From positions 23,174,283 through 23,238,282 of the forward strand of contig NC_063156.1 of assembly GCF_020921035.1 (NCBI RefSeq): DNA of 64,000 bases, written 5' to 3'. Shown here piece after piece: positions 21,820 through 58,142 of this stretch (its first letter is position 1; each line of letters begins with the position of its first letter). The notes under the pieces were generated by a model. That model saw nothing but the letters and a program-made list of their open reading frames with translations, made no database searches and was not told where the DNA came from. This DNA comes from Rhodamnia argentea. Taxonomy: Eukaryota; Streptophyta; Magnoliopsida; Myrtales; Myrtaceae. Position numbers and translations under genes: made by a program.

Positions 21820-22326
21820 ATGGCTGATCGTCACTCCAGCCCAGTCCAGGTCCAGAGAGCCCCAAGACCCACTGCCGCCGCTCCGGCCGCCACCCCCGGC
21901 AGTGCCTTCCTCCAGAAGCTCCACGAGCATGCGCCGAACCCGGCCCAACTCCTGGGCTTCCTCAGCCTCCTCGTCTCTGGAGGCATCTTGCTCCTCCTCA
22001 CCGGCCTCACGGTGACCGGCACCGTGATTGGCCTGATCCTATTCACGCCTATCATCATTATCTCAAGCCCGATATGGATCCCGCTCTGTGTGGCCATGTT
22101 CGTGATGGCCGTGGGGTTGTTGTCCGTTTGCGGGTTCGGCATCACGGCATTGGCCGGCTTGTCGTGGCTGTACAGGTACTTCCGCGGGTTCCACCCGCCT
22201 GGGTCGGACCGGGCCGACTATGCGCGGAACCGGATCTTCGACACGGCCCGCCACGTGAAGGACTATGCAAGAGAGTATGGTGGGTATTTGCATAGCAAGC
22301 TGAAAGATGTGGCTCCCGGGGCATGA
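21820..22326 (+). CDS. Oleosin, seed oil-body structural protein
   Basis: A single intronless exon of 168 aa; the ATG at 21820 has context caATGG. A hydrophilic Ala/Pro-rich N-terminus (about 1-45) is followed by a roughly 70-residue hydrophobic hairpin (about 46-118). The diagnostic proline knot reads [12 protein letters not shown] (P-x5-SP-x3-P). The amphipathic C-terminal tail ([20 protein letters not shown]) is short, with no obvious 18-residue insertion, which suggests a low-molecular-weight form. Oleosins coat seed lipid droplets and keep them small. The coding sequence is GC-rich against its AT-rich surroundings, common for this family. The promoter carries seed-type motifs. Confidence 0.96.
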
Positions 22327-27389: not shown

Positions 27390-27682
27390 GGTGTTTCACT
27401 GTTCGTTTATGATGGATTCAAATACATTTGAAAAAATTTCAAAAAAGGGCCCGAAAGTGTTTTTATTTTCTCAAATAAAGCTTGAAGTGGATTTTGTTTT
27501 AAATAAAGGCATGAAGTGTTCTTATTATTTTGAAAAAAGGCCGGATCAAAGGCATTTTTATTATTTATTATTTATGATTTTTCCCCCCCTTTTTTAATTC
27601 TTGTTTTCCTTTTCTTCCTTTTTTTTTCATTATAGGTGAGGGCTGTCCTCGCCATGCTTAGTTGAGGCCCTCGCCGCTCCGA
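27390..27682. repeat. Left half of a foldback element split by the pararetrovirus pair
   Basis: Wording 'gaagtggattttgttttaaa', 'ggcatgaagtgttcttatt' and 'aaaggcatttttattattta' leads into a T-rich tract and a GC-rich 'ctcgccatgcttagttgagg' core, then stops at the viral border. Its inverted partner is at 42362-42615. It belongs to the same family as 10985-11520. Confidence 0.6.
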
Positions 27683-28171
27683 TACCAAAAAGGAGCGGAA
27701 GCAAGAACTCAATCTGAAACAATTATGCTATCCCACACGGGCTCTCCGGCCACTCAAGGGATCGCCTGTTAGTTTCCGGATCTTGCTCTTGGAACTAATC
27801 CTTTAAGACATCGATTTCTGATCCACAGGATCCACTATCTATTTCCCCTATAGGTTTATCCCGATCAAATATTGGATAGATCCAGCACTCATTTGCGAAG
27901 TTAATCAACAAGTGGAGAGAGGCCCCGCCGGACTCTACACGTGCTTTAACCCAATACTAGATCTAATAAACTTTCTGGATGATTACGGAATTTGTGGCAA
28001 GTGGAGAGCATACTGAACCAACCATTGTAATAGAGAAGTAGAGACATTTTAGCACGTAAGTATCTGCTCGAAGAGAAAAGAGGAGTGTTTTAGAAACTCA
28101 TTAGGAAGCAAACTCTTACTTGGATTTACAAAGGAAGCCAAGTCTTGGCCCTTACAAGGGGAAAACAAGCC

Positions 28172-28178
28172 TTATATA
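28172..28178 (-). promoter_or_regulatory. Viral-type TATA box, left copy
   Basis: TATATAA on the minus strand, within 'cctatataagg', about 490 bp before the genome end, at the place where caulimovirids start their pregenomic RNA. It is an exact mirror of the box in the right copy. Its direction is leftward, away from TAF2. Confidence 0.6.
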
Positions 28179-28441
28179 GGCGAAAACACAAAGGAGTCCT
28201 CATAATTGAGGTCTGACAAGCACACAACCAACATTGACTTTTGAGGAAGCCATTATTGCAACTAAGCACACATACAAACAAACTCTGCTGCCATTCTTGA
28301 CTCTTTACAAAGGGAAGCAAATGGAGCAGGTAAACACACGACTTTTCGGGCTTTTGATATCCGATGAAGCACATGGCCTTGTCTGGTGGAGTAGGTGGTG
28401 TCGGATGGAGGAAGTTGATGGATCTGGTGGAGCGGGTGGCA

Positions 28442-29581
28442 TTATCGTCTCCCGTCTGGGTCGGGATGATAATTTGCGTCGTCCGAGTCAGAGCTGTCCG
28501 GTCCATCATAGTCAGAGGGGCCGTCTTTCTGACTTCTGTAGGCTCGCAATAACTGCTCTTTTTCATAATCTGAGATAATCTGATCTAAGTGTAGGTCATG
28601 AGGGACGCCCGGGGTGCTTCTGGATGAGGAAGGGACGTCGGGCATAACGGGTTGCGGATAGATGTATGGATCTTATGACAGTTGTCCGCCCCATGGGTCA
28701 AATGACTGGGTATCTGTATCCATGGAGGAGCTTGGTTGATTGCTGTTGTACTCCTGGAGGGCTTCGAATACATGAGGATGGGTCCTGGGTGTATCCCAAG
28801 AGTAGCTCGCTGAGCTGTAAGGCCATATTTCGGGTGGGATAACCTTATTCTCTTGACAGAGTATTCGCTGGAGTTCTCTGTATTCATGAGGAATGTCAAA
28901 TACAGTTCTTGAGTACGTCTTGTGAATCTTGAAGACTTGATCTTGGAGTACGGGTTTGAAAGTGGTAGTGCCTGTTTCTGCAGCATTGGATCTTTTATCT
29001 CCCGAGGGTCCAATGAATGACCGGGGATGATGAAAGAGGACAAGTATGTGTCCGCAAGGTTCGGGTCGACCAACTTGTCTTTGAAGAATGAACAAGTGTT
29101 TCCATGCTTGAACGGGTTGGAACCAAGTAAGAATATCAAGAAAGAACTTCCGGGGATGGTTCCGATAATTTCCAAAAAGGGAATCGGACAAAACCTTAAT
29201 GATTTCGTCTAAAGGGAACTCTATGGCAACTTGGTAGAGGTGAAACATAAACCAAAACATCCATTTTAAATCAGAAGGGAAAGGGATGGTAGAAGACCAT
29301 CTTAATGGATGTATGAACGGATAATCACAATTGAGACCTGGTTTGAGGAATAATCCACCATAATCTTTAAAGATGACATAATGATAATTCCAAAATAATC
29401 TGTGAAAATTATCGGAGAGGGAATTCTGTTTGAGGAGTGGAGGGATATCAGGTGGATGCTGGTGTGATGGCCACCGATGTTCACGCATATTCTGAGTTTT
29501 GAAGGATCCCGAAAACTCTTTTCGAATAAACATGTTTATGGATTCGAAAGGTTCTTTTGGCCTAGAAAAGAAATCAGCCAA
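28442..29581 (-). pseudogene. Pararetrovirus C-terminal polyprotein region, left copy
   Basis: A frame of 302 codons (29581-28673) follows RNase H in the same frame, separated by an in-frame stop at 29636-29638. It opens with the last RNase H residues (ADFFSRPKE) and continues into a region that I cannot assign, rich in aromatic residues early and Pro/Ser late. A short further frame (28645-28442) is acidic (YDGPDSSDSDDANY). Function is unknown. Confidence 0.7.
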
Positions 29582-29635
29582 AATATTTTTCTTTCCGGAA
29601 ATGTGTTTTGAATCGAAAGAGTATTTGGAAAACCA

Positions 29636-30796
29636 TTACGCCCATCGCAAGAGTTGAGGATGAGGAACTTGCTTTTGCTTGAATGTGAGCATCTGAGGAA
29701 AAGAGGACATGTCCATTTCGACTAAAAAATGATGACCAATGAGATGAAATTCAAATTTTTTGATTCCATTTTTGACTGCAAGAATTTCTTTGAAAGTGGA
29801 GTGATAATGCATTTCTGCTGCCGAAAACTTTCCACTTTTGTATGCACAGATTCTTCGCTTACCTTTAATTTCTTCAAGGAGAATAGCTGCCCAGTGCTTG
29901 TCACCGGCATCCGTTTGAAGGATTCTGGTTCCAGTGGAAGGGATCCGGAGAGGGGGCAAATTTTGCAGTATTTCTTTTAAGGTCTTAATGGAAGTGGTTT
30001 GCTTTTGTGACCAAGGAGGAGGATTCTTTTTCAACATCTTTTGCAGGGGAGAAAGGATCTGAGAAATTTTTGGGATGAAATCTCTGAGATAATTGACAAT
30101 TCCTAAAAAGGATTGGATCTGGTGAACCGAGAGATTTTCATCCGGGAATTTCTGGAGATCTTCCGCAATGTGTGGTCCTGGGCAATAGGTTCCATTTTTC
30201 AAACGCATGCCGAGAAATTCAATTTCTCGTTGAGCTATGATCATCTTCTTTTGTGACAGCATGATGCCATGAGTATGCACAATTTCAGCAAATTGTTGAA
30301 GGAGTTTTGCATGAGAATGTTCATCATGGGAAAACAGGAGAATATCATCAATATAGATCCGGGCATTAGCAAGGATAGGTTGGAAAATTTTGCACATAGC
30401 CTTTTGGAATAAGGACGGAGCAGTTTTAAGTCCAAAGGGAAGGACTCTCCATTGGAAGTCTTGGTTAGGGATGCAGAAACCAGTTTTAAATGCATCTGAG
30501 GGATGAATTCCTAATTGCCAGAAGCTTGCCTTAAGATCGAATTTGGAATAGATCTTAGCCTGGGCAAAGTTGGAGAACAAAGAGTTCTTATGGGGCAATG
30601 AGAATTTGTCATCTTGGATGAACAGATTGAGAGGCTGGTAATTTATGACTAACCGTAGCTTTCCACGATTTTGTTCTGCTCTTTTGTTGACATAGAAGGC
30701 CTCACATGCCCAAGGGGGAGTCGAGGGCTCGATGAGTCCCCGAGAAAGAAGGCGAGCACATGCCGCTTGTGCTTGAGCAAGGTGATCCGGGTTCAT
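29636..30796 (-). pseudogene. Pararetrovirus reverse transcriptase-RNase H, left copy
   Basis: An open stretch of 386 codons covers palm motifs (LRLVINYQPLN, then FGLKTAPSLFQ and the YIDD catalytic motif at about 30345-30356), thumb, and RNase H (LQTDAGDKHWAAILLE, SAAEMHYHSTFKEILA). The DD of YIDD and the RNase H Asp/Glu residues are present. This is the best preserved RT of the pair. It is cut off from the protease upstream by frame changes and from the C-terminus by a stop, so it is not expressed as an intact polyprotein. Confidence 0.88.
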
Positions 30797-31166
30797 GCTC
30801 GAATGACTTGCTTTGGTGGGATTGATTTCTCCATTTTTCTTGAGGGGAATTATGAAAAAAAAGTCAGAATTTTGCCAAAGAGGGTTGGAGCAAATCCGAG
30901 CAAACTGCTGGTGAGATTCTGAACAATGAGAAAGGAGAGATTGATAGATGGGATCAAGGATTTACGGTTGGATGAGAAAGAGTCTCTGGATTTCAACAAA
31001 CTCCTAGATCTTCTTTTGGAATTTTAACCCCTTAGGGTTTATCTTGAGTTGTGGGAGCTTAGAAAGAATATCCCAACCAATGATGAGATCCTTGTCATGA
31101 GATGGACATCCAAGGATTTGGGTGGTGATTTCACAACCGGGGAGAATATGAATGGTAAGAGGTTTA

Positions 31167-31826
31167 CTACGCAGTTTGGTAGTAAAAGTTTCTCCCGAGG
31201 CTGCCTGGAAATATCTGGTATATGGTGTCCAGTATTCTTCCGGAAGGATTTTGGTATCTAACGGGGATGCAATTGCGCCAAGATCGATGAGAGCAATGAC
31301 TTGGATGGATTTGGTGCTTTACGGAAGGTGAAGCTGGACCGGAAAATGTGGGGATGAAATGTTGGGGAGTGGATTCAGAAAGAATCGGCAAGAGGAAAAA
31401 AGGAGAGAATATCTCCCGGGGAAGAGTCCGAATCAGAAGAGTAAGTTTCAATAGCACACAAGGTGTCTGGAGACGGCTCTTCTTCAATGGAGAAGATGGA
31501 TTCAACGTCTTCATCACCGAGAGAGATCCCGGTGTTTTGAGAGATCTTCTGGATCATGTAACTGCCCTGTTTCTTCGCTTGGGGGCATTTTTTTGCAAAG
31601 TGACCCTTCTTATTGCAAATAAAACATCCGTAAGACTTGGGTTTCTTGCGGTGCTTTGCGGAATGACTGCGTGATTTCTTTCTGAGGAATTTCCACTTGC
31701 TTCTGCGAGGCTTCGCAAATGAAAACTTCTTGAAATGAACTTTCTTCTTGTGACACGAGCAAGACGGATCATTACGATCTCTGGTGCACTTGATCTTCCA
31801 TTCGGCCTTTCACGAGTTCTTGTCAT
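31167..31826 (-). pseudogene. Pararetrovirus zinc knuckle and aspartic protease, left copy
   Basis: A CCHC knuckle (C-x2-C-x4-H-x4-C) is encoded at 31583-31624. The protease active-site triplet at about 31277-31285 reads Asp-Leu-Gly instead of Asp-Thr-Gly, so the catalytic motif is damaged. Three overlapping frames cover the region, showing frameshifts. Confidence 0.75.
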
Positions 31827-31841
31827 ACTTGCGGTTTTCTT

Positions 31842-33917
31842 TTAAGAACTCGGTCGAACTGTCTTTTCTTCGCATTTTTCTTCAATGGCAATATGAACGA
31901 CTTGCTGTATTTCTCCGAGTGTGGATTCAAGGAGAGGCCTTTGAAGATGTTTATCAACTTCATCTGCAATTTCTTTAGGAATGGAGGCTAAAAAGATTGG
32001 TTTAAGATTGATGTCCGCTCCGAGATGATAAAAGAGTCGAATCATCTCTTTGAAATGTCTGTCAAGATCCTTTCGAGAAGTGGAGCAGCATTTTCTTTCA
32101 AAGAACTCTTTTCGCTTGAGTTCTCTTTCATTGGTGGGTTGACCAACAAAATACAGGTGAATGACCTGCATAGCCCGATTAAAGTTCATCGGGAGAAAAG
32201 CAATTTGGTCTTGTTCTGAGATGGAGATCCACCGGTCTTTCGGGGTTCCAATGAACTTGCTAGTGAATTCTAAGAGAACTTCATAAGTGCTTTGTTCGAC
32301 TAGATTTCTGGCAACAAGCCATGTATGGAACTCCTGGATTTTCATGGGCCAACGATGGTAAGGAACATCATCAAGAGTAAAGTACGTCCTTGATGAGGAA
32401 TGGGCTGGACGAGATGATGGACTTGGATCCGAAGGGGTTTTAAGATTGACAAATTCCACTTCTTCATCTTCTTCTTTTGGGATCGCCGCAGCCATCATAA
32501 TGGCTGGGATTTGGTCCGAAATGTGTTCGGGGCCATTTTCGGATTCTGAAGAAGGAGATGTTTCTGATGGTGGTACAGATGATGTTGAAGAGGAATCATC
32601 TTGCTCGGTGGCTTGGATTGTGGAAATGGATGGAATTTGTTTTCTCGGGAAACTTTCAATAGGATTAGAAACCATGAATGAAGGTAGTTTCTGTGAAGGG
32701 GAGTGTGGAGGTGAGTCGGGAGGTTCTGGCGGTGCTGTGGGAGGGATTGGAAAAGTAGGAACCGATGATGATATGTCGGAGAATTTTGTTCTTTCGGCAT
32801 CGGCTTCAGCCTTCTTGATTGCTTTGAGTCGAGCTCGAAGAGCGAGTACGTTTATACCTGAATCTGAAGGTACTGTCTCAAGAACTTCTTGGAAAGGGGT
32901 TGAAGAAGTTTGGCTGGAAGCTTGGGACGAACGAGTAGTAGGACGTGTATGGGAGGGAAATGGAGGAATAGGGGAAGTAAATGAGGAGAAAGGTGGTTGG
33001 TACTCAAGTTGAGCTTTCTGATTTTCAAGGATGATGATCTGCCTCTTTAGCTTCTCTATTTGAGGAGTCCGGTCTTCTAGGTAATGGTGATGGAGCTGCT
33101 GATTTTCCATCATGTAGACTCTCTTCTGGAAATCTGCAAGCATCTTGCGGATGTGTGTGGAAGCTTGATCAACTCGATCTACTTGAGTGGAAACTTTCTC
33201 AAGAGCCACGTTTTGGGCTAATGCATTCTCTGTCCGCCAATTGAGAACAGTTTCTGCTGGAGCTGGACCTTTCTTTTTTCCATGTGGGTCAATCTCGGTT
33301 GGTGCGGGTATCTTAGGAGCATGATAATATCGTTGCTGAGGGTCAGAGAATTTTCTGAGTGGTGGAAAATTTAAAGTGGATGAGTGAGATTCATCTCTGG
33401 GCCGGAGTGGAGGAAAATCGCCAGGTTGAAACATACGGATGCTTGGAAGTGGTTCGGGGATGGGAACACATGTGTATGGTTTTGGGAGATCAATGGAGCA
33501 AGTTGGATTTTTCCCGATCCATTTTTGGATGGGTTTATAAAAGGGGCTGGTAACGGGTTTCTGAGGCGGTGTTGATGGGGATTTTGGGGGTTCCGGTTTA
33601 CAAGAGGATGGATAGGGTATTTGGGGTATTGGAGGAGTACTATCTTGAACAAGGTATTGCCGGTTTCCGCCATCTTCGCCAAGAGGACCTATGGTGGGAT
33701 CACCGTCAAGGTACCGTTGGTACGAGAGGGTCTTTCTTTTTTTTCTTTTTCTTTGAAGAGGGTCCGTCGTCTTCTTCAGCAAGAGAAGTACAAGAAGGAC
33801 AGCCACATTCTGGATCCCAAAAACAATGACCCGAGGAATCTTTAAAGGCGTGAATCGGTCGTCCATCGAGTTGAACGATCGGACAAACTTTTTGGATCCC
33901 GGGTCTTCTATACTCAC
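31842..33917 (-). pseudogene. Pararetrovirus coiled-coil and coat-protein region, left copy
   Basis: A continuous frame of 691 codons, the longest viral frame in the window. It contains a Pro-rich segment, a predicted coiled coil (IEKLKRQIIILENQKAQLEY), a Ser/Pro/Glu-rich linker and a coat-like domain (FHTWLVARNL through KPIFLASIPKEIADEVDKHL) that precedes the zinc knuckle. It ends shortly before the knuckle, in a frame different from it. The first residues still belong to the spacer after the movement protein. Confidence 0.8.
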
Positions 33918-34011
33918 TTGTTTGGGATGGACATGGAGTGAAACGAGAGAATAGTAGGGAAGGAGGGAAAAAGGGACGAAGAGTCTTCTTTTTCTTTTGC
34001 AAACTTGATGG

Positions 34012-34929
34012 TTACTGTACCATCTTTCTTCTTGGTGAACTCGGGGTTCGATGGCGAAAGCGGCCTTGTGTTTTGATGAAGTTTTTCATAATTGGTGACC
34101 CGGCTATCGGGGAGAAGCTTGATGAGTCTGTTCTCTCGGGTATTTGCCTGGGAACATGAACACAAGATGTCTGGTCATGGTCTATTGAGATGATGAGGGC
34201 ATCATTTGAGGTGGGATGGTTAAGATCAATGGCATGATTATGGACCCTATAAACCATACGATAATGGAGTGTAGCAGACCAAAGAATTAGGAGTCCGAGG
34301 AGCTCCGGTAATTTGCGATTGAACTTTTTAAGGCCGACAATAGTCCCGGGTCTCGCTAGTGCCATGTTGAAATTTGGAAACAAAGTAACAAAGACTCGTC
34401 CCAACATTTAAAGTGGTCTCGGATTGTACCTATACGGGCATGCTGGTAGTCTAAGAACCGTGTGTCCAAAAGGGCAATTCGCTGCAACAGGGGAGACCTT
34501 TACGGCCATGAAAGGAAAGAGCAAGTCGATGGCTCCGAAATGAAGATGGGTGAACCCTTGTTGGATCCTTCGGAGTGGAAATTCGGGAGGAATTTGGAGC
34601 GTCACAAACCTGTTCTTGTTGTGTAGCGAGAATATGATGTTGGTCAAACTTGGAGGACCGAACATACTCTTTAACAGAGCGGGAGTGTGTCGGATAAGGT
34701 GTTTGATGGAGCGAATTGGAGAAAAGGAGGTGGGTTTAGCAAAGGCTGAATATGGGTTGATAAGCGGAAGATGTGTTTGGGAGATCTTGTTGTCTTTAGA
34801 AAAGGCTACCTCATAGAGATAGTCTATTTTGGATGCAGTGGATTTTCGTAACTCGGGGGGTGATGCGAGAGAGAGTGGAGATTGATGCTGTATGGGAGTG
34901 AGCATGCTTTCTTCTTGTGGAGTTTCCAT
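34012..34929 (-). pseudogene. Pararetrovirus movement-protein region, left copy (disrupted)
   Basis: The viral ATG at 34929 opens a frame that runs to a stop at 34408-34410. A second frame with movement-protein wording (FVTLFPNFNMALA, ATLHYRMVYRVHNHAIDL) continues to 34012. A frameshift lies between the N-terminal part and the 30K-type core, so the conserved LLDTRF segment, intact in the other copy, is lost from frame here. Confidence 0.75.
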
Positions 34930-35003
34930 GTTGGAGAAAGCTTCTCTTCATCACGGACCTTCGAGCGCCAAAATATCAATGCTATTCTTCTTCAATGGCT
35001 ATC

Positions 35004-35050
35004 GATACCAAAATTGAGTTCTTGCAAGCTCCTTTTGGTATCAGAGCCAT
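35004..35050. other. Centre of the inverted viral dimer: two primer sites around a 19-nt spacer
   Basis: Arms meet as 'taccaaaa' (35006-35013) and 'ttttggta' (35033-35040), with 19 nt between (ttgagttcttgcaagctcc). The right side continues as TGGTATCAGAGCC, a perfect tRNA-iMet primer-binding motif of caulimovirids. The left side, read on the minus strand, is TGGTATCGATAGCC, a degraded form. The spacer matches, with small changes, the last bases of the viral genome as seen at the outer ends (ttgagttcttgcttccgctcc). It is therefore terminal redundancy of the right copy rather than host DNA. Confidence 0.75.
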
Positions 35051-35123
35051 ATGCCATTGAAGATAGATTAGTATTGATATTTTAGCGCTCGAAGGTCCGT
35101 GATGAAGAGAAGCTTTCTCCAAC

Positions 35124-36356
35124 ATGGAAACTCCACAAGAAGAAAGCATGCTCACTCCCATACAGCATCAATCTCCACTCTCTCTCGCATCACCCCCGTA
35201 GTTACGAAAATCCATTGCATCCAAAATAGACTATCTCTATGAGGTAGCCTTTTCTAAAGACAGCAAGATCTCTGAAACACATCTTCCGCTTATCAACCCA
35301 TATTCAGCCTTTGCTAAACCCACCTCCTTTTCTCCAATTCGCTCCATCAAACACCTTATCCGACACACTCCCCGCTCTGTTAAAGAGTATGTTCGGTCCT
35401 CCAAGTTTGACCAACATCATATTCTCGCTACACAACAAGAACAGTTTGTGACGCTCCAAATTCCTCCCGAATTTCCACTCCAGTGGATCCAACAAGGGTT
35501 CACCCATCTTCATTTCGGAGCCATCGGACTTGCTCTTTCCTTTCATGGCCGTAAAGGTCTCCCTGTTGTAGCCAGAATTGCCCTTTTGGACACACGGTTC
35601 TTAGACTACCAGCATGCCCGTATAGGTACAATCCAGACCACTTTAAATGCTGGGGCAGTCTTTGTTACTTTGTTTCCAAATTTCAACATGGCACTAGCAG
35701 ACCCGGGACTATTGTCGGCCTTAAAAGTTCAATCGCAAATTACCGGAGCTCCTCGGACTCCTAATTCTTTGGCTGCTACACTCCATTATCATATGGTTTA
35801 TAGGGTCCATAATCATGCCATTGATCTTAACCATCCCACCTCGGATGATGCCCTCATCATCTCAATAGACCATGACCAGACATCTTGTGTTCATGTTCCC
35901 AGGCAAATACCCAGAGAACAGCTCATCAAGCTTCTCCCCGATAGTCGGGTCACCAATTATGAAAAACTTCATCAAAACACAAGGCCGGCTCGCCTCATCG
36001 AACCCCGATTCACCAAGAAGAAAGATGGTACTGTAACCATCAAGTTTGCAAAAGAAAAAGAAGACTCTTCGTCCCTTTTTCCCTCCTTCCCTACTATTCT
36101 CTGTTTCACTCCATGTCCATCCGAAACGGTGAGTATAGAAGACCCGGATCCAAAAAAGTTTGTCCGGTCGTTCAACTCTGATGGACGACCGATTCACGCC
36201 TTTAAAGATTCCTCGAGTCATTGTTTTTGGGATCCAGAATGTGGCTGTCCTTCTTGTACTTCTCTTGCTGAAGAAGACGACAGACCCTCTTCAAAGAAAA
36301 AGAAAAAAAGAAAGACCCTCTGTACCAACGGTACCTTGACGGTGATCCCACCATAG
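35124..36356 (+). pseudogene. Pararetrovirus movement-protein region, right copy
   Basis: The viral ATG at 35124 is followed by a premature TAG at 35199-35201. A later frame of 302 codons (35448-36356) holds the 30K-superfamily movement-protein core (ALLDTRFLDYQHARIG, YPNFN-type LFPNFNMALADPG, TLHYHMVYRVHNHAIDL) and continues into the Cys-rich FWDPECGCPSC spacer. The core is whole, but the N-terminus is cut off. Confidence 0.82.
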
Positions 36357-36362
36357 GTCCTC

Positions 36363-38480
36363 TTGGCGAAGATGGCGGAAACCGGCAATACCTTGTTCGA
36401 TATAGTACTCCTCCAATACCCCAAATACCCTATCCATCCTCTTGTAAACCGGAACCCCCAAAATCCCCATCAACACCGCCTCAGAAACCCGTTACCAGCC
36501 CCTTTTATAAACCCATCCAAAAATGGATCGGGAAAAATCCAACTTGCTCCATTGATCTCCCAAAACCATACACATGTGTTCCCATCCCCGAACCACTTCC
36601 AAGCATCCGTATGTTTCAACCTGGCGATTTTCCTCCACTCCGGCCCGGAGATGAATCTCACTCATCCACTTTAAATTTTCCACCACTCAGAAAATTCTCT
36701 GACCCTCAAGAACAGTATTATCATGCTCCTAAGATACCTGCACCAACCGAGATTGACCCACATGGAAAAAAGAAAGGTCCGGCTCAGCAGTAAAACCTGT
36801 TCTCAATTCGCGTACAGAGAATGCATTAGCCCAAAACGTGGCTCTTGAGAAAGTTTCCACTCAAGTAGATCGAGTTGATCAAGCTTCTACACACATCCGC
36901 AAGATGCTTGCAGATTTCCGGGAAGAGAGTCTACATGATGGAAAATCGGCAGCTCCATCACCATTACCTAGAAGACCGGACTCCTCAAATAGAGAAGCTA
37001 AAGAGGCGGATCATCATCCTTGAAAATCAGAAAGCTCAACTTGAGTACCAACCACCTTTCTCCTCATTTACTTCCCCTATTCCTCCATTTCCCTCCCATA
37101 CACGTCCTACTACTCGTTCGTCCCAAGCTTCCACCAAACTTCTTCAACCCCTTTCCAAGAAGTTCTTGAGACAGTCCTTGATTCGGTATAAACGTACTCG
37201 CTCTTCGAGCTCGACTCAAAGCAATCAAGAAGGCTGAAGGCGATGCCGAAAGAACAAAATTCTCCGACATATCATCATCGGTTCCTACTTTTCCAATCCC
37301 TCCCACAAGCACCGCCGGAACCTCCCGACTCACCTCCACACTCCCCTTCACGTAAAACTACCTTCATTCATGGTTTCTAATCCTATTGAAAGTTTCCCGA
37401 GAAAACAAATTCCATCCATTTCCACAATCCAAGCCACCGAGCAAGATGATTCCTCTTCAACATCATCTGTACCACCATCAGAAACATCTCCTTCTTCGGA
37501 ATCCGAAAATGGCCCCGAACACATTTCGGACCAAATCCCAGCCATTATGATGGTTGCGGCGATCCCAAAAGAAGAAGATGAAGAAGTGGAATTTGTCAAT
37601 CTTAAAACCCCTTCGGATCCAAGTCCATCATCTCGTCCAGCCCCATTCCTCATCAAGGACGTACTTTACTCTTGATGATGTTCCTTACCATCGTTGGCCC
37701 ATGAAAATCCAGGAGTTCCATACATGGCTTGTTGCCAGAAATCTAGCTGAACAAAGCACTTATGAAGTTCTCTTAGAATTCACTAGCAAGTTCATTGGAA
37801 CCCCGAAAGACCGGTGGATCTCCATCTCGGAACAAGACCAAATTGCTTTTCTCCCGATGAACTTTAATCAGGCTATGCGAGTCATTCACCCGTATTTTGT
37901 TGGTCAACCCACCAATGAAAGAGAACTCAAGCGAAAAGAGTTCTTTGAAAGAAAATGCTGCTCCACTTCTCGAAAGGATCTTGACAGACATTTCAAAGAG
38001 ATGATTCGACTCTTTTATCATCTCGGAGCAGACATCAATCTTAAACCAATCTTTTTAGCCTCCATTCCTAAAGAAATTGCAGATGAAGTTGATAAACATC
38101 TTCAAAGGCCTCTCCTTGAATCCACACTCGGAGAAATACAGCAAGTCGTTCATATTGCCATTGAAGAAAAATGCGGAAGAAAAAGACAGTTCGACCAGTT
38201 CTTAAAAGAAAACCGCAAGTATGACAAGAACTGTGAAAGGCCAGAATGGAAGATCAAGTGCACCGTAGATCGTAATGATCCGTCTTGCTCGTGTCACAAG
38301 AAGAAAGTTCATTTCAAGAAGTTTTCATTTGCGAAGCCTCGCAGAAGCAAGTGGAAATTCCTCGGAAAGAAATCACGCAGTCATTCCGCAAAGCACCGCA
38401 AGAAACCCAAGTCCGACGGATGTTTTATTTGCAATAAGAAGGGTCACTTTGCAAAAAAATGCCCCCAAGCGAAGAAACAG
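36363..38480 (+). pseudogene. Pararetrovirus coat region and zinc knuckle, right copy
   Basis: The proline-rich and coiled-coil parts are split over five short overlapping frames (36363-37675). A longer frame, 37554-38789 (411 codons), holds the coat-like domain, a Lys/Arg-rich stretch and the CCHC knuckle CFICNKKGHFAKKC (38421-38462). That frame runs on past the knuckle and ends out of phase with the protease. Confidence 0.8.
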
Positions 38481-38739
38481 GGCAGTTACATGATCCGGAA
38501 GATCTCTCAAAACACTGGGATCTCTCTCGGTGATGAAGACGTTGAATCCATCTTCTCCATTGAAGAAGAGCCGTCTCCGGACACCTTGTGTGCTATTGAA
38601 ACTTACTCTTCGATTCGAGACTCTTCCCCGGGAGATATTCTCTCCTTTTTTCCTCTTGCTGATTCTTTCGTAATCCACTCCCCAACATTTCATCCCCACA
38701 TTTTCCGGTCCAGCTTCACCTTCCAGAAAGCACCAAATC

Positions 38740-39050
38740 CATCCAAGTCATTGCTCTCATCGATACTGGCGCAGTTGCATCCCCGTTAGATACCAAAATC
38801 CTTCCGGAAGAATACTTGGACACCATATACCGGATATTTCCGAGCAGCCTCGGGAGAAACTTTTACTACCAAACTGCGTAGTAAACCTCTTACCATTCAT
38901 ATTCTCCCTGGTTGTGAAATCACCACCCAAATCCTTGGATGTCCATCTCATGACAAGGATCTCATCATTGGTTGGGATATTCTTTCTAAGCTCCCACAAC
39001 TCAAGATAAACCCTAAGGGGTTAAAATTCCAAAAGAAGATCTAGGAGTTT
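38740..39050 (+). pseudogene. Pararetrovirus aspartic protease, right copy
   Basis: The catalytic Asp-Thr-Gly is present at 38762-38770 within wording like LIDTGAVAS. The protease frame differs from the knuckle frame upstream, so a frameshift separates them. Confidence 0.65.
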
Positions 39051-39247
39051 GTTGAAATCCGGAGACTCTTTCTCATCCAACCGTAAATCCTTGATCCCAT
39101 CTATCAATCTCTCCTTTCTCATTGTTCGAATCTCACCAATAGTTTGCTCGATTTGCTCCAACCCTCTTTGGCAAAATTCGACTTTTTTTCAAAATTCCCC
39201 TCAAGAAAAATGGAGAAATCAATCCCACCAAAGCAAGTCATTCGAGC

Positions 39248-40430
39248 ATGAACCCGGATCACCTTGCTCAAGCACAAGCGGAATGTGCTCGCCTTCTTTC
39301 TCGGGGACTCATCGAGCCCTCCGACTCCCCTTGGGCATGTGAGGCCTTCTATGTCAACAAAAGAGCGGAACAAAATCGTGGAAAGCTACGGTTAGTCATA
39401 AATTACCAGCCTCTCAATCTGTTCATCCAAGATGACAAATTCTCATTGCCCCATAAGAACTCTTTGTTCTCCAATTTTGCCCAGGCTAAGATCTATTCCA
39501 AATTCGATCTTAAGGCGGGCTTCGGCAATTAGGAATTCATCCCTCGGATGCATTTAAAACTGGTTTCGCATCCCTAACCAAAGACTTCCAATGGAGAGTC
39601 CTTCCCTTTGGACTTAAAACTCGCTCCGTCCTTATTCCAAAAGGCTATGTGCAAAATTTTCCAACCTATCCTTGCTAATGCCCGGATCTATATTGATGAT
39701 ATTCTCCTGTTTTCCCATGATGAACATTCTCATGCAAAACTCCTTCAACAATTTGCTGAAATTGTGCATACTCATGGCATCATGCTGTCACAAAAGAAGA
39801 TGATCATAGCTCAACGAGAAATTGAATTTCTCGGCATGCGTTTGAAAAATGGAACCTATTGCCCAGGACCACACATTGCGGAAGATCTCCAGAAATTCCC
39901 GGATGAAAATCTCTCGGTTCACCGGATCCAATCCTTTTTAGGAATTGTCAATTATCTCGTAGATTTCATCCCAAAAATTTCTCGGATCCTTTCTCCCCCG
40001 CAAAAGATGTTGAAAAAGAATCCTCCTCCTTGGTCACAAAAGCAAACCACTTCCATTAAGACCTTAAAAGAAATACCGCAAAATTTGCCCCCTCTCCGGA
40101 TCCCTTCCACTTGGAACCGTAATCCTTCAAACGGATGCCGGTGACAAGCACTTTGGCGGCTATTCTCCTTGAAGAAATTAAAGGTAAGCGAAGAATCTGT
40201 GCATACAAAAGTGGAAAGTTTTTTCGGCAGCGAAATGCATTATCACTCCACTTTCAAAGAAATTCTTGCAAGTCAAAAATGGAATCAAAAAATTTGAATT
40301 TCATCTCATTGGTCATCATTTTTTAGTCGAAATGGACATGTCCTCTTTTCCTCGGATGCTCACATTCAAGCAAAAGCAAGTTCCTCATCCTCAACTCTTG
40401 CGATGGGCGTAATGGTTTTCCAAATACTCT
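39248..40430 (+). pseudogene. Pararetrovirus reverse transcriptase-RNase H, right copy (fragmented)
   Basis: The same domain as in the left copy but broken into frames 39248-39532, 39608-40144 and 40135-40326. A stop follows the FDLKAGF palm segment (39531), frame shifts follow around 39570-39620, and another lies at the start of RNase H near 40130. YIDD is at 39689-39700. Confidence 0.82.
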
Positions 40431-40439
40431 TTCGATTCA

Positions 40440-41845
40440 AAACACATTTTCGGAAAGAAAAATATTTTGGCTGATTTCTTTTCTAGGCCAAAAGAACCTT
40501 TCGAATCCATAAACATGTTTATTCGAAAAGAGTTTTCAGGATCCTTCAAAACTCGGAATATGCGTGAACATCGGTGGCCATCACACCAAGTATCCACCGA
40601 TATCCCTCCACTCCTCAAACAAATTCCCTCTCGATAATTTTCACTGATTATTTTGGAATTATCATTATGTCATCTTTAAAGATTATGGTGGATTATTCCT
40701 CAAACCAGGTCTCAATTGTGATTATCCGTTCATACATCCATTAAGATGGTCTTCTACCATCCCTTTCCCTTCCGATTTAAAATGGATGTTTTGGTTTATG
40801 TTTCACCTCTACCAAGTTGCCATAGAGTTCCCTTTAGACGAAATCATTAAGGTTTTGTCTGATTCCCTTTTTGGAAATTATCGGAACCATCCCCGTAAGT
40901 TCTTTCTTGATATTCTTACTTGGTTCCAACCCGTTCAAGCATGGAAACACTTGTTCATTCTTCAAAGACAAGTTGGTCGACCGTAACCTTGCGGTACACA
41001 CGTTGTCCTCTTTCATCATCCCCGGTCATTCATTGGACCCTCGGGAGATAAAAGATCCAATCTTTGCAGAAATGTGCACTACCACTTTCAAACCCGTACT
41101 CCAAGATCAAGTCTTCAAGATTCACAAGACGTACTCAAGAACTGTATTTGACATTCCTCATGAATACAGAGAACTCCAGCGAATACTCTGTCAAGAGAAT
41201 AAGGTTATCCCACCCGAAATATGGCCTTACAGCTCGCCGAGCTACTCTTGGGATACACCCAGGACCCATCCTCATGTATTCGAAGCCCTCCAGGAGTACA
41301 ACAGCAATCAACCAAGCTCCTCCATGGATACAGATACCCAGTCATTTGACCCATGGGGCGGACAACTGTCATAAGATCCATACATCTATCCGCAACCCGT
41401 TATGCCCGACGTCCCTTCCTCATCCAGAAGCACCCCGGGCGTCCCTCATGACCTACACTTAGATCAGATTATCTCGGATTATGAAAAAGAGCAGTTATTG
41501 CGAGCCTACGGAAGTCAGAAAGACGGCCCCTCTGACTATGATGGACCGCACGGCTCGACTCGGACGACGCAAATTATCATCCCGACCCGCACGGGAGACG
41601 ATAATGCCACCGCTCCACCGGATCCATCAACTTCCTCCATCGACACCACCTACTCCACCGAGACAAGGCCATGTGCTTCATCGATATCAAAAGCCCGAAA
41701 AGTCGTGTGTTTACCCGCTCCATTTGCTTCCCTTTGTAAAGAGTCAAGAATGGCAAGCAGAGTTTGTTTGTATGTGTGCTTAGTTGCAATAATGGCTTCC
41801 TCGGAAGTCAATGTTGGTTGTGTGCTTTGTCGACCTCAATTATGA
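40440..41845 (+). pseudogene. Pararetrovirus C-terminal region, right copy
   Basis: Mirror of the left C-terminal region, in fragments 40786-40986, 40871-41374, 41064-41462 and 41402-41845. It is collinear with the left copy but has several small indels, and its function is unknown. Confidence 0.65.
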
Positions 41846-41866
41846 GGACTCCTTTGTGTTTTCGCC

Positions 41867-41873
41867 TATATAA
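41867..41873 (+). promoter_or_regulatory. Viral-type TATA box of right copy, pointing toward TAF2
   Basis: TATATAA within 'cctatataagg', on the plus strand, 939 bp upstream of the TAF2 ATG and about 490 bp before the viral genome end. If active, transcripts would start near 41900 and run into the TAF2 5' region. Activity is not shown. Confidence 0.6.
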
Positions 41874-42361
41874 GGCTTGTTTTCCCCTTGTAAGGGCCAA
41901 GACTTGGCTTCCTTTGTAAATCCAAGTAAGAGTTTGCTTCCTAATGAGTTTCTAAAACACTCCTCTTTTCTCTTCGAGCAGATACTTACGTGCTAAAATG
42001 TCTCTACTTCTCTATTACAATGGTTGGTTCAGTATGCTCTCCACTTGCCACAAATTACGTAATCATCCGGAAAGTTTATTAGATCTAGTATTGGGTTAAA
42101 GCACGTGTAGAGTCCCAGGGGCCTCTCTCCACTTGTTGATTAACTTCGCAAATGAGTGCTGGATCTATCCAATATTTGATCGGGATAAACCTATAGGGGA
42201 AATAGATAGTGGATCCCGTGGATCAGAAATCGATGTCTTAAAGGATTAGTTCCAAGAGCAAGATCTGGAAACTAACAGGCGGTCCCTTGAGTGGTCAGAG
42301 AGCCCGTGTGAGATAGCATAATTGTTTCAGATTGAGTTCTTGCTTCCGCTCCTTTTTGGTA

Positions 42362-42615: not shown

Positions 42616-42805
42616 GGCGTTGATCCGCGTGACGTGGCCAGCCAGTCGGGGCGGCCCAAAATCTAGGGCTCGTACATGGTCAGCGCTTAGCACGGAGCCC
42701 AACGACGAGAGCTTCTATAAATCCAGGCGGAGCTCCTGCGGTCCATACTCTCGTTCCCTCGCTCACTCTCTCGCTCGGATCTCGTTTCTCTCTCTGGCGA
42801 GAGAG

Positions 42806-43445
42806 ATGGCGAAGGCGCGCAAGCCCAAGAACAACGACGATGCGAAGCTCGATCATCCCGGCGCCGTCGTCCGCCACCAGAAGCTCTGCCTCTCCGTCGA
42901 CCTCCCTAACCGGAGAATCTACGGGTCACTATCTCTCTTTCTCTCTCGTTTGAAATTTGAGCTCGGAACTGTGCTCTCTGCTCTGTCTTCTCCGCGTTCT
43001 CCATTTCTCAATCTCTGACTTGCAATTTCGCCTTTGGAGTGCGAGCTTTGAATCGCCGCATTGTGGATGCTTCCACCCTCCGTTGCACGCACGGTGTTAA
43101 GTGTGTTGAGGAGTTCCGAGTCATTCCTTGCGATTGTCTACTCTTTTTCGTTAATCGATTGAGGAGGAGCTCGTCTAGTGTTTGTCACCTGAACATATGT
43201 GGTCTGTCGATCTTGGAACTGTAATCAATCTAGAGTTGGAGTTTCTTGCTCGGTGCATGTCGAATTGCCGGTTTCATTGGCTCAGCTCGTCCTGTGCAGT
43301 CAGATGTTGATCGTTTGTTGATTGTGCCGATTTATGTTATTTTTGTCTCGTCAAGGAATTTATAAGATACTCAAGGCCTCGACGTTTGCTAAAACCCATC
43401 AACTTCTTTCTGCATGTCTGATATCACTCGAGAAGAGTCCATTAT

Positions 43446-43479
<34 letters not shown>

Positions 43480-46400
43480 CACCCAACCGCTGTGTTTCTG
43501 TAGTTGAATTTCATAGCTGGTAATTTTGTATGTTATTATGGTCTTCTTCTCCTAATAATCGGAAAAGAAGACAGGCTTGATTGCGTCTCTATGTTTTCGT
43601 CCCAATGCAGTGACTGCACCTGATGTGTTTTTAGAATAATTTTAAGTCAACTCATTTTTTGTGCACTTCAAACTAATGCTTGTCTTTTTGGAGTAGCTTG
43701 ATATTTGGGTGGCTTTATGAGTAATTTTTGTATGCATTTTTGTAGGTATACGGAGCTAGAAATTGCAGTTCCAGATATTGGAATAGTGGGATTACATGCT
43801 GAAAATCTGGGGATCTCTAGTGTTTTGGTTGATGGAGAGCCTTCTGAGTATGAATACTATCCCCACTATCAGAATTTAGATAACGAGAGAAGATGGAGCT
43901 CTGTCATGTCTCCTGCTTCTGCTGCTGGTGTTGCTGGGTCTTTGTATCTATCAGCTCTGGATAGGGAATTGGTCCCAAACTTATTAATTAATTGCTGTAA
44001 GGGTTTCAAGGTGGAAAATGAATCGCAGGATCAATTGGTGGTAGAGAATGCTTCACAGTCATCTGGCGAGGTCAAGCAGGTAATTTGAGTCAATTTTTAA
44101 ATGATGAGAGGCTACTTGATCTGATTTGAGTTGAAGAGTGAGCTTACTTTCTTGGCTTTTGCCCAATGAACTGCTGTTTGAGGAAAATATGCTCAAAGTA
44201 GTATTCTAAAATCAGGTATTCTGGCTTCTATTTCTACACTGAACTGACAATAATCTACTAAGTCTTGCTTATGCTTCCTACGTCCATACTTAGAAGAGCG
44301 TTAATTAGCTGCTGACAGACCTTAAATTACCCCTTTTTCCTTCTTGGACCTCTGTTTCTAGTGGGAGTGATGGTTTCTATTGTTTGTTGCCTTTGGATTC
44401 TTGAGTTTATGGATAGAAATTATTGAGTTTGGCATGGTCAATATGTTTTCATGAGGTAAACTTCTGTTGGATCTTATGTAGGTTGATGTTTTATGCAGAA
44501 TGTAAAGCTGGTGCGCATTGAGTATTGGGTGGACAAAGCAGAGACAGGCATTCATTTTGAGGATAATATTCTTCACACCGATAATCAGATCAGGCGGGCT
44601 CGTTGTTGGTTTCCCTGTATGGATGAGAACTCACAGCAATGCTGGTATTATACGACGACAATTTTTGCAGTCTTAGAGGATTAATCTTGGCATGTTACTT
44701 TTATAATGGTTGTTCAATTATATTCTTATATAGAAAAAAATAAGAATTATGGTTTATTCTGTTACTTTGTTCAGCTATGATTTGGAATTCACAGTGGCCC
44801 ATGATCTTGTTGCTGTCAGCACTGGGAAATTGCTATATCAGGTGAGATGGAGAAGATAAAAAATCTACTGTAATGCACATAAGATAAGTAGTATAATTCT
44901 GCTGCTGAAATGCAGGCAATAATCTTGATGTATAATGCACAAACTCATGACTGATTCAAGTGGTTGGATGTGTGATGTCTTTCTATAGTCCTTTCGACTG
45001 ATGATGCACCAATGTTCGGTGAATCTCTTTCTTCCAGAGAGAGTTGGGACATACCGTGATGCATTTTGACACACCTTTAGTTTTAGAAAAATGTTTGGTC
45101 AGGACAATCTGTGAGCTTGACATGAGTATATGGTCAGTACGTGCATCGTTTTGAGGGAATATTTGGGCAAAGCTGATCTTTCTGGCTCTATTCTTTTCCC
45201 CTTTATCCTGCCATCGTTCATTTAGATGTTAGTGAGGTGATGAAATAGATTCTCTCTCTTTCTCAGAAGTGACGGTAATATGTTGAAGTTTTTTTGAATA
45301 TTGTCAATGACTTAAATGACATGCATGGAATTCAGTGTAAACCTAAACTTGATTGGTGGTAGTTTATTCTAATAGATGATTTACTTGACTATTTTCCTAT
45401 GAGTGATTGACCAAAGCCTGACATGAGGCCATGAATCTCTACTAGCATCCAGGGCATAGGATGTCATTGTTAGTATTTACTTCTTCTTTGCTCCTCTTTT
45501 CCATTTATTTTGTAGGGCTGAGAATGAATATGATTTGAATGCTGATGTCTTGTTAAGCAAGTTTATAATTCTTGCAAGGATTTCAATATGAGCTATTTTG
45601 CAATATGATGTTTTCTTTTATCCACGAGCATGTCGTGTGTATGTCTGTTAAATTACTAATGACAGATAAGTCCTATATGACAGTGATATTTTGACTTCTG
45701 TTTGGTCGGTTAATAATTCTGCATTACTCAGCTTGAGCTTAATACGAAGCAATATTTTGTTAATTTTCCAGTTGATGATTGCTGATTGTGTGATATTCTG
45801 CACATGTTTTGCAGGTTTTGAGCAAGGATGATCCTCCTCGCAAGACTTATGTATACAGGTTAGATGTTCCAGTTAGTGCTTGGTGGATATCCTTGGTGGT
45901 TGGGCCACTTGAAATCTTTCCAGACCCCCAGAATTGTCTGATATCACACATGTGTTTGCCTGCTTATAAGTCCAAGCTACAAAATACCGTGGGATTCTTT
46001 TATAGTGCTTTCAGGTTCGTCCACCAGCATAGATTGCATTGGAAATAGACTTAAAAGTTTGCTGGATTTTGCTGTATTCTATGGCATAGTTTATTGATGC
46101 ACAATTCATTTTTAGCAGCCATTACGAGGAATACCTTGGAGCGAAATTTCCATTTGGATCATACAAGCAAATTTTTATTGCACCTGAGATGACAGTGTCA
46201 TCATCGAGCTTAGGGGCCTCAATGAGCATATTTAGTTCCCAAGTTTTACATGATGAGAATATTATCGACAAGGTTTGGCTCTGTGACATCAGTGTGGTTT
46301 TGCCTTTATGTAAGCTTAGAAACATGTGCATTTGTCTTAACACCCAATGCTTGGGAGGCCTTTAAAATATGGAATAGGTAGTAATAATATTGTGATGGTA

Positions 46401-49400
46401 CCTTTAGACGTGTAGACGGAGCAATGGCAAGGTAGTAATATTTGCTCTCGTTTGGAGAAAACTCTTTTTTGTTTATTTGACCATGCTCTTTATAGCAAAG
46501 ATTTTTTAAACTGTTTGACCATCTCCCTGTCCTGTGATGCTTTATCAAGTCTCGGGCCCCCAGTTGCACCTTCCTTGAGCTACCATGACCTCAAAGAGTC
46601 CATGTTTGTTGCTTTCCTGTTTCTAAAAGCTTGGTAAATGACGGCAGACATTAATTTTATTGTTACAGACCATTGACACAAGGATTAGACTAGCTTATGC
46701 CCTTGCAAGACAGTGGTTTGGTGTATATATCATCCCATCCGGCCCGGATGATGGTAAGTGGTTCAAATTTCTTTTGTTCACTCCTTTCTTCCTATTGGCA
46801 GTTTCTATCCTCTATGCCTTTTTGACGGAACTACTCCACTAGATTACATTTGCAGTGACACTTGTTTCTTCTGGTTTGCAGAATGGTTGTTGGATGGTCT
46901 TGCCGGTTTTCTTACTGATTCCTATATCAAGAAATATTTGGGAAACAATGAGGCTCGCTATCGGAGGTTCAAGGTTTGCCATTTGTTTGAGCATGCCTCA
47001 TTTTGTTCGGAATGACATGTCATTCTACATAATGTGATGTGAAAGATTTTATAAGACCACAACCAACTGCTCTAAAAGCTTAAGCCGATAAAAGAAGGCG
47101 TGGTTTAATATTTATATATTCCAACACTCCCCCTCACGCTTAGTCTGGTCTTTTTGCCTAGTACTAAGCGTGGAAATATTCATTTGGGGAGGTAAATAGG
47201 GGCCTGGAAAGATTTGAACTCGGGACCACCCGCTCCGATACCATGAAAGATTTTATAAGACCACAACCAACTGCTCTAAAAGCTTAAGCTGATAGAAGAA
47301 GGCGTGGTTTAATATTTATATATTCCAACATGATGCATTCGAGCAAATGCAGCTTTTAACACTTGCAGTGGAAGAATAGAATTGGATATCCTCTTTAAGC
47401 TTAATTTTTATAACTTCTGTTGCTTTTGTATACTTAGATTCTCAAATTTCTTGTTGCCTATATGCTCAGCTTTACATGTTTGTATTCATGTATGTTTGTG
47501 TAATGGTCTGATACTTAACTGGAAAAAGATCTTTGGTATCCAACACTGACAGTCCATTGCTTAATGCTTTTTACGATTTTATAATAGATTAGGCATCTTA
47601 TTACGACGACTGGAAGTTAGTTTGAGGAGCCTTGCCAGTTAGATCTCCAGGTTAAAAAATTTAGGGTTTCTGTATAGGGTTGTCTACCTGTGGCTTTTGG
47701 GGGAAAACGCACATTGTTGACTTTGCTTCTTTCTTGTAGCCCACATATGTGGCTGTGCAAACAGGTGTATCCTTTTTGAGCTACTATAGCTCCAGTAAGA
47801 TGTACAGAAATGGTGTTTTGATTTATCCCCTTTTGAAAGGTTAGGGTTTGGGGTGCGGGCTAGACTGGATTAGTGGAAGTTAAGACGTATACCGACTTAT
47901 GTTCACATTGTCTGATGTATTGTTATGGCTCTTTATATATCTGGGCCGTAAAATCACAGTTAGGTGGACACTAATATTGTCATCATCAACCTTGTCATCT
48001 TTCTTTTAATGAATTGAATACTTTTGAACATCACCAGAATGCTTATTTTGCCCAAATGCAGGCAAATTGTGCAGTTTGCAAAGCAGATGATGGTGGTGCA
48101 ACTACTTTAAGCTCCTCTGGTTCTTGTAAGGATCTGTACGGGACTCAGTCTCTTGGTTTATATGGCAAGATAAGATCATGGAAGTCTGTAAGTTGACATC
48201 AATGAAATTTTCTGTCTCGCAACACTTGTTGGTCATCTACAGTCTTGCATCTTTTGGGTGGCGAATATGACCACTGTGTAATTTTGTGAAGGTCGCAGTC
48301 CTCCAGATGTTGGAAAAGCAGATGGGACCTGAATCTTTCTGTAAAGTAAGCGTTCTAGCTGCCTTTTTGCTTTTTGCACTATGTTAGAGAGTGCGATATT
48401 ATCTATATGGATGTGTATCATTTATTAAACAGTTGGTTGACTGTTTGCCGTCACTATGACTCATCACTACAGTTTTTTGTTGTAATGTAAATGAATTTCC
48501 AAAGTGGTTCTTGTAAAGTGTGCCCTTCATTTCATTCAGTGTTTGCCTATGTTCCATAAAGGAAATATCAAACCAACGGTTCTCTCCATGGGAGAGAGAT
48601 ACATTGCTGCTACCTTTTTGCTATAGTCGAGCCATGTGCCATTTTCTAGTTTTTAGCAATCAATTTTCTGTTAGCACTCACACTATTTTATCCTTTTTAT
48701 CATGTTAAGCCCTATGTCTTTTAACCAGTTTGTTCATAGCTTTACTAGTATGTCATAGAATGGGGGACACTTGGAATTTAAGGCAAAAGGGCCCACTAGA
48801 ATTTGTTTTTTTTTGGAAAGGTTCAGTACAATTCATCCTTTAACATATATACTAGTCTAGAGATTATACCTTGAAGAAAAATCGATAGAAGAACATGTTT
48901 CCTTGCACCAAATGTTTATTTAACTTAAATTTGTCTTTCCTTTGAGCAAAGAGATCTGATTTATGTTCTGTATGTTCTCCATAATGTCTTCTGATTAAGT
49001 TGTTAGTAGTAATGAATGTCACTGGACTGTACTTTGTGGATGATTTGCTCAGTCTGATCCTTTTCATTTCTTTTAAATGTACAGATGTTGCAGACTATTG
49101 TTGCTCGTGGTCTAGATGCAACCCAGCCTTCAAGAACTTTGAGCACGAAAGAGGTGATTTCTTTTTAGCAGTATTATTGTGCATTGTCTATTGTAAATTC
49201 GAGTTAATCTAGTTATTCTGAAATGTAACATAAATAAAATATGCAGTTCAGACATTTTGCTAATAAGGTTGGAAATCTAGAGCGGCCTTTTCTTAAAGAG
49301 TTTTTTCCCAGATGGGTGGGATCATGTGGGTGTCCAGTGCTAAGGTGTGATTTACAGAAGTTCTGTAACGTTGGGTCCTTGCACCTCTAATGCATTTTAC

Positions 49401-58080: not shown

Positions 58081-58142
58081 TTTAGATATTTTACTTGGGA
58101 TGACACGAATGTTTAGATATTTTACTTGGGATGACACGAATG
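58081..58142. repeat. 31-bp tandem duplication
   Basis: A unit beginning 'tttagatattttacttggga' and ending 'gacacgaatg' occurs twice in direct succession without differences, immediately before the foldback element at 58143. Confidence 0.85.

What the first reader, a model, noticed from the sequence alone, without database searches (positions are those of the whole stretch)
27683..42361. Head-to-head pair of full-length endogenous pararetroviruses forming a 14.7-kb inverted repeat
Seen directly: minus-strand viral frames from 34.9 to 28.1 kb are mirrored by plus-strand frames from 35.1 to 41.8 kb. Arms of 7331 and 7329 bp share the same outer ends and are separated by 19 nt. Caulimoviridae sequences usually lie in genomes as fragments or scrambled tandem pieces. 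Two complete genomes in perfect inverted arrangement would, if transcribed across the centre, fold into a very long dsRNA. That could be a natural source of antiviral small RNAs. The RNA role is inference.
Basis: partly seen in the sequence, partly recalled or inferred. Interest (0 to 1): 0.88.

Follow-up and report, generated by a model that had tools for sequence, protein, structure and literature searches.

The report
Head-to-head pair of fossil plant viruses
Two full-length but broken copies of an old plant virus sit back to back beside a gene of the basic transcription machinery in a plant of the myrtle family; the layout looks real and its joints suggest how the viral DNA was opened before insertion, but nothing yet shows that it protects the plant.

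Summary
In detail: 27683-42361 is one inverted repeat, arms 7331 and 7329 bp, 97.1% identical (136 substitutions, 76 indels). Each arm is a full-length caulimovirid genome opened at its tRNA-Met primer-binding site; the '19-nt spacer' is viral. Both host junctions are viral 3' ends, and the flanking oleosin and TAF2 genes lie close together in several other eudicots, so a chimeric assembly is unlikely. The host is probably a Myrtaceae. Three in-frame stops are shared by both arms, so the copies look like siblings of one defective genome, or were homogenised later. Best reading: an inverted dimer joined end to end and captured by the chromosome, most simply in one event, now a relic. The dsRNA idea is untested and not favoured: each copy's candidate promoter lies at the outer end and points outward. 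siRNAs from rearranged caulimovirid inverted repeats are already in print (tomato, soybean; review PMC10377300). Many arm differences cluster in C-N-G and CCG contexts and may be methylation-linked base-calling errors, so 3% divergence is best taken as an upper bound.

The parts
27676..35013 (-). Left viral copy (sense on - strand), opened at the primer-binding site; the symmetric arm limit is 27683, 7 more nt complete the outer primer-binding site
35014..42361 (+). Right viral copy (sense on + strand), including 22 nt of viral sequence upstream of its primer-binding site
35014..35032 (+). Former '19-nt spacer': diverged repeat of the viral sequence that lies just upstream of the primer-binding site at the outer ends
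35036..35047 (+). tRNA-Met primer-binding site of the right copy (TGGTATCAGAGC, the same 12 nt as in AcV1, PMC4411674)
   Evidence: sequence; motif passage
34999..35010 (-). Altered primer-binding site at the 5' end of the left copy
27676..27687 (-). 12-nt primer-binding site (one mismatch) at the 3' end of the left copy
42357..42361 (+). First 5 nt of the primer-binding site at the 3' end of the right copy, then host DNA
35202..36353 (+). Open stretch with viral movement protein domain (PF01107, E 1.5e-11)
37551..38786 (+). Open stretch with CCHC zinc knuckle (PF00098, E 1.3e-4); a zinc knuckle is also found in the left copy at 31378-31809
31007..31318 (-). Retropepsin-like stretch, weak (PF00077, E 0.0035, below Pfam's cut-off)
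29639..30961 (-). RT and RNase H (PF00078 E 1.6e-25, PF17919, PF17917); the right copy shows part of RT at 39578-40141
28676..29635 (-). 320-aa open stretch downstream of RNase H, no Pfam family at E 0.01; a Hibiscus relative (P0001) aligns through from RT into this frame
39042..40412 (+). Span holding three in-frame stops (39042, 39084, 40410) that are shared with the left copy (31006, 30964, 29638)
41867..41873 (+). TATATAA, candidate pregenomic-RNA promoter element of the right copy, pointing right toward TAF2
28172..28178 (-). The same TATATAA in the left copy (25-nt context identical), pointing left, away from the centre
42716..42722 (+). TATAAAT, candidate core promoter element of TAF2, 90 bp upstream of its ATG, on the TAF2 side of the insertion
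42806..57543 (+). Host TAF2 (TFIID subunit 2) coding span; 21 matched pieces in order, 18 of them at 79-100% identity to Rhodamnia argentea
21820..22323 (+). Host oleosin gene, 96% to Psidium guajava over 168 residues

Best explanation
An inverted dimer of one defective caulimovirid genome of the petuvirus/florendovirus lineage. Two sister DNA molecules, each opened at the minus-strand discontinuity (the primer-binding site), were joined 5' end to 5' end and inserted by host end joining, most simply in a single event, into the DNA upstream of TAF2 in a Myrtaceae ancestor. Shown: the geometry, the primer-binding-site ends, viral 3' ends at both host junctions, and the shared stops. Inferred: end joining, one event, and that the locus is now a methylated relic without a selected function.
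For: Single 14.7-kb inverted match with a symmetric outer limit. All four viral ends lie within about 22 nt of the primer-binding site: the right copy starts 22 nt upstream of it, the left copy 3 nt upstream, the right copy ends 5 nt into it, the left copy at its full 12 nt with one mismatch. Both arms carry viral domains and match the same RT homologs. Three in-frame stops (TAG, TAA, TAA) sit at matching positions in both arms; against 9 chosen homologs they are supported by 8, 8 and 4 in the left arm and 7, 4 and 4 in the right. Substitutions are spread evenly (variance/mean 1.16 in 250-bp bins), with no visible conversion tract. By locus tags, oleosin and TAF2 are within 10 gene numbers of each other in 7 species, for example Melastoma MLD38_032819 and 032820, so both flanks probably belong to one ancestral locus.
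Against: No empty site from a relative could be compared, so target duplication or deletion and a single event are not shown. The shared stops could also come from gene conversion between arms, or from an already defective family copied many times; other copies in the genome could not be searched (genome search did not complete). Two of the three stops lie in a less conserved linker. In other species (Penstemon, Protea, Buddleja, Persea) the listed oleosin and TAF2 are far apart or on other chromosomes, possibly other oleosin family members. Indels, unlike substitutions, are somewhat clustered (variance/mean 1.78). No (TA)n array, often seen at such loci, was found in the window.
Confidence: 0.68

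Rival explanations
1. The locus is a working hairpin gene: it is transcribed through the centre, folds into a 7-kb dsRNA and yields 21-24 nt siRNAs against related viruses. (This can be true together with the integration history above.)
For: 4547 of 7311 left-arm 21-mers (62%) and 4256 of 7308 24-mers (58%) are perfect in the right arm; longest identical run 302 bp. Rearranged caulimovirid inverted repeats feed 22-nt siRNAs in tomato and soybean according to the review PMC10377300 (section 3.5). Eucalyptus caulimovirid elements yield mostly 24-nt sRNAs (PMC5452135, passages).
Against: The candidate promoters of both copies point outward; TAF2 seems to have its own TATA box between the repeat and the ATG; no transcript across the centre is known to me. 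sRNAs of other elements are not evidence for this locus.
Confidence: 0.2
2. Two separate insertions: a second viral molecule was captured at the exposed end of an existing copy, or recombined with it.
For: The review PMC10377300 (section 3.1 passage) names recombination between an existing copy and episomal virus as a way to multicopy loci; the two inner ends are not identical.
Against: The second insertion would have to hit the primer-binding-site end of the first and bring the same three stops.
Confidence: 0.15
3. A single integrated copy was later duplicated in inverted orientation.
For: Shared stops fit a duplicated, already decayed copy.
Against: The duplicate would have to end exactly at the viral end next to unrelated host DNA and start with viral sequence from the other end of the genome; such duplications usually carry flanking DNA or stop inside the element (general knowledge).
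Confidence: 0.08
4. Assembly artefact: fold-back read or misjoin.
For: Arm differences look partly like base-calling error: 73 of 76 indels are 1 bp, 26 of 79 indel bases sit in C-run-G against 5.6% background (p 9e-14), and presumed C>T changes are one-sided in the left arm. So the stretch is probably poorly polished.
Against: Fold-back would mirror the left flank into the right flank; the right flank is TAF2 instead and no such mirror match exists. Both host junctions are viral 3' ends, which a single insertion cannot give, and the flanking genes are close together in several other species. Extra copies collapsed in the centre are not excluded.
Confidence: 0.07

Closest known systems
Rearranged endogenous caulimovirids in inverted repeat, 'TSAs' of tomato (Valli et al., as reported in PMC10377300, section 3.5 read; original not seen)
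   Same: Caulimovirid DNA in inverted repeat in a plant chromosome
   Different: Here two full-length genomes, both opened at the primer-binding site, in a Myrtaceae-like host; no siRNA evidence
Endogenous florendoviruses (PMC4241990, passages seen)
   Same: Order MP, zinc finger, protease, RT, RNase H. The paper puts Eucalyptus (Myrtaceae) florendoviruses next to those of Theobroma and Gossypium; here Hibiscus holds 5 of the first 7 RT hits (the second is Tanacetum, the first Gossypium is 15th)
   Different: Most florendoviruses have an ORF2 in another frame; here a Hibiscus relative aligns through from RNase H into the downstream open stretch in one frame, and breaks blur the ORF layout
Petunia vein clearing virus and AcV1 of Aristotelia (PMC4411674, passages seen)
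   Same: Genome of 7.1-7.2 kb; AcV1 starts at TGGTATCAGAGC; MP upstream of RT/RNase H
   Different: PVCV copies in petunia are head-to-tail (PMC10377300, passage), here head-to-head; genus not settled
Endogenous banana streak virus loci such as eBSGFV-7 (PMC10377300, passages seen)
   Same: Viral segments in both orientations at one locus
   Different: Those are described as fragmented and rearranged; here two collinear full-length arms

Membership tests
Caulimoviridae (endogenous) | RT and RNase H of caulimovirid type | tested here: met
   PF00078, PF17919 and PF17917 in the left arm; hits include plant 'polyprotein' and 'reverse transcriptase domain, viral movement protein' names; top PDB sequence match 8r0s 'Enzymatic polyprotein', which I recall, not from a call, to be the cauliflower mosaic virus enzyme
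Caulimoviridae (endogenous) | Movement protein and tRNA-Met primer-binding site | tested here: met
   PF01107 in the right arm; TGGTATCAGAGC at 35036-35047
Caulimoviridae (endogenous) | No integrase, no LTRs | tested here: met
   No integrase family at E 0.01 in the 20 arm stretches scanned, which do not cover every frame; terminal redundancy of only about 15 nt (left copy) and 27 nt (right copy) around the primer-binding site; no direct repeat within an arm in the self-BLAST
Genus Florendovirus | ORF1 of 205-216 kDa followed by a florendovirus-specific ORF2, usually in another frame | tested here: inconclusive
   A Pfam-less 320-aa stretch follows RNase H, but in the frame through which a Hibiscus relative aligns; no florendovirus reference was on hand
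Genus Petuvirus | One large polyprotein ORF, genome of about 7.2 kb | tested here: inconclusive
   Length 7.33 kb is near; frames are broken, so one ORF cannot be read; placement of the window in the RT tree is unsupported (37/25)
siRNA-producing caulimovirid inverted repeat (tomato TSA type) | Inverted-repeat conformation | tested here: met
siRNA-producing caulimovirid inverted repeat (tomato TSA type) | High density of 22-nt sRNAs and a transcript through the repeat | not testable with these tools
   No RNA data available; motif positions argue against viral promoters driving it

The most novel reading that the evidence does not exclude
A full-genome viral hairpin locus: both copies of a complete caulimovirid kept as a near-palindrome upstream of a general transcription-factor gene, where it supplies siRNAs covering the whole viral genome while its outward-facing viral promoter adds to, or its silencing spreads to, TAF2.
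Probability: 0.12. Interest if true: 0.8.

Novelty: new member of a known kind. Interest (0 to 1): 0.42.

Why it matters
How caulimovirid DNA is captured in chromosomes is still called speculative (PMC10377300, section 3.1 passage). Here all four viral ends are preserved near the primer-binding site, which points to gapped virion-type DNA opened at the minus-strand discontinuity and joined end to end. If siRNAs do come from it, they would cover a complete viral genome; the head-to-head layout also makes a testable prediction, that the viral promoters fire into the flanks and not into the hairpin.

Tried and rejected
Chance: rejected, one 14.7-kb match at E 0.0. tRNA and Rfam scans of the window found nothing. 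Left flank: no Pfam family at E 0.01 in six frames of 22.7-27.68 kb and no PDB match for two ORFs. Relatives in viral contigs: none confirmed. Genus: an RT tree of 36 rows (the window plus 35 homologs picked by hand from the 120 listed of 445) gives the window no supported sister. Clock: K2P 0.019 over 7,277 aligned bases gives 0.7 to 3.2 My for assumed, recalled rates of 1.3e-8 to 3e-9; doubtful, since differences are partly error-like and arms may convert. Other copies and the empty site in the host genome: the genome search did not complete. A paper on a full-length head-to-head pair: none seen in the listings. Papers on C-N-G linked nanopore errors: nothing on point in the listings.
Full report
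Observation. A self-comparison of the window returns one large inverted match, 27683-42361 against itself, 96.97% over 14,766 columns. The arms are 7331 and 7329 bp and align at 97.08% with 136 mismatches and 76 indels.

Ends. In viral sense the right copy begins 22 nt upstream of TGGTATCAGAGC and ends 5 nt into that motif, followed by host DNA; the left copy begins 3 nt upstream of an altered form of the motif and ends with all 12 nt of it (one mismatch). TGGTATCAGAGC is the tRNA-Met primer-binding site that by convention starts a caulimovirid genome (passages of PMC4241990 and PMC4411674). So each copy is a full-length genome opened at this site with a short terminal redundancy (about 15 and 27 nt), and the 19-nt spacer is part of the right copy. 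That virion-type DNA opened at the minus-strand discontinuity would look like this is inference from recalled knowledge of pararetroviral replication.

Content. Twenty open stretches, ten per arm, were scanned against Pfam at E 0.01. Left, 3 of 10 had families: RVT_1 with two RNase H families, a weak retropepsin, a zinc knuckle. Right, 3 of 10: movement protein, zinc knuckle, part of RVT_1. The other 14 had none. The RT stretch has 445 homologs, 120 listed, from many eudicots; Hibiscus sabdariffa holds 5 of the first 7 at 61-70% identity. The tree of 36 rows leaves the window without a supported sister. The genus is left open between petuvirus-like and florendovirus-like.

Breaks. Both arms have broken frames. 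Against 9 homologs chosen from the 120 listed, the left arm shows 4 stops inside homolog-supported frames and the right arm 13, several of them where a match ran on past a frame change. Three of the left arm's four lie at the matching place in the right arm; the others were not matched between arms. One shared stop lies in well-conserved RNase H; the other two lie in the linker between protease and RT, where homologs align less well and some have gaps, so they are weaker evidence. Only this region was tested; the movement and coat regions were not, for lack of homologs. Shared stops mean one defective parent or later homogenisation. No conversion tract is visible (variance/mean of substitutions 1.16; indels 1.78).

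Quality of the differences. 73 of 76 indels are 1 bp, and 26 of 79 indel bases lie in a run between C and G against a background of 5.6%. Presumed left-arm C>T changes on the window's + strand outnumber G>A 48 to 11, and 28 of the 48 are at CCG; the right arm shows 21 to 17. The polarity is assumed. Deamination of methylated C should hit both strands alike and gives no indels (general knowledge), so I read part of this as methylation-linked base-calling error in a poorly polished repeat; this is inference, and no paper on point was found. The TAF2 exon matches show no obvious frame break (not tested base by base). If right, it also hints that the repeat is methylated in CG and CHG, hence silent.

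Host and place. The oleosin ORF is 96% identical to Psidium guajava and TAF2 matches Rhodamnia argentea best: probably a Myrtaceae near those genera, species unknown. TAF2 starts at 42806, 445 bp right of the repeat, and its matches run to 57543. TATAAAT at 42716 and GGCCCA at 42653 lie between repeat and ATG, so TAF2 probably kept its core promoter. By locus tags in the two hit lists, oleosin and TAF2 are within 10 gene numbers in 7 species (Melastoma, Tetracentron, Cinchona, Clitoria, Canavalia, Arctium, Dipteronia); they are about 200 and 440 numbers apart in Penstemon and Protea, and on different chromosomes in Buddleja and Persea (counted by eye, capped lists, oleosins are a gene family). 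The flanks therefore probably belong together.

Mechanism. Both arms carry the same TATATAA about 495 bp from their outer ends (41867 on +, 28178 on -; the scan missed the left one because its range stopped short). In a genome opened at the primer-binding site the promoter lies at the far end from the start of the ORFs; two such copies head-to-head have both promoters facing out. They would transcribe the flanks, the right one toward TAF2, and not the hairpin. A dsRNA would need another promoter. This is a prediction from motifs only.

Known. The review PMC10377300 (passages, and section 3.5 in full) reports inverted-repeat caulimovirids feeding 22-nt siRNAs in tomato and soybean, head-to-tail petunia arrays and fragmented banana loci. 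Eucalyptus caulimovirids give mostly 24-nt sRNAs (PMC5452135, first of four parts and passages). I saw no report of a full-length head-to-head pair in the listings, which cover open-licence papers only.

Verdict. Real as far as the sequence can show, well defined, and informative about integration; the immune role is untested and not favoured by the motif positions. New member of a known kind.

Noticed in passing
59788-61864: Remains of a Ty3/gypsy-type retrotransposon on the - strand (Tf2-1 SH3-like, integrase zinc-binding, RT match).
   Followed up: no
27683-42361: Arm differences concentrate at C-N-G indels and CCG>CTG changes with contig-strand asymmetry; may betray methylation-linked base-calling errors and so a methylated locus.
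   Followed up: partly
11848-12370: 59-bp tandem repeats present in both orientations about 200 bp apart, an AT-rich local inverted repeat.
   Followed up: no
58080-58645: Cluster of 31-bp tandem repeats, partly in inverted orientation, just downstream of TAF2.
   Followed up: no
14358-20980: NuBaID/C3HC zinc-finger stretch on the + strand (14358-14993) and a cyclophilin-like ORF on the - strand (19970-20980).
   Followed up: no
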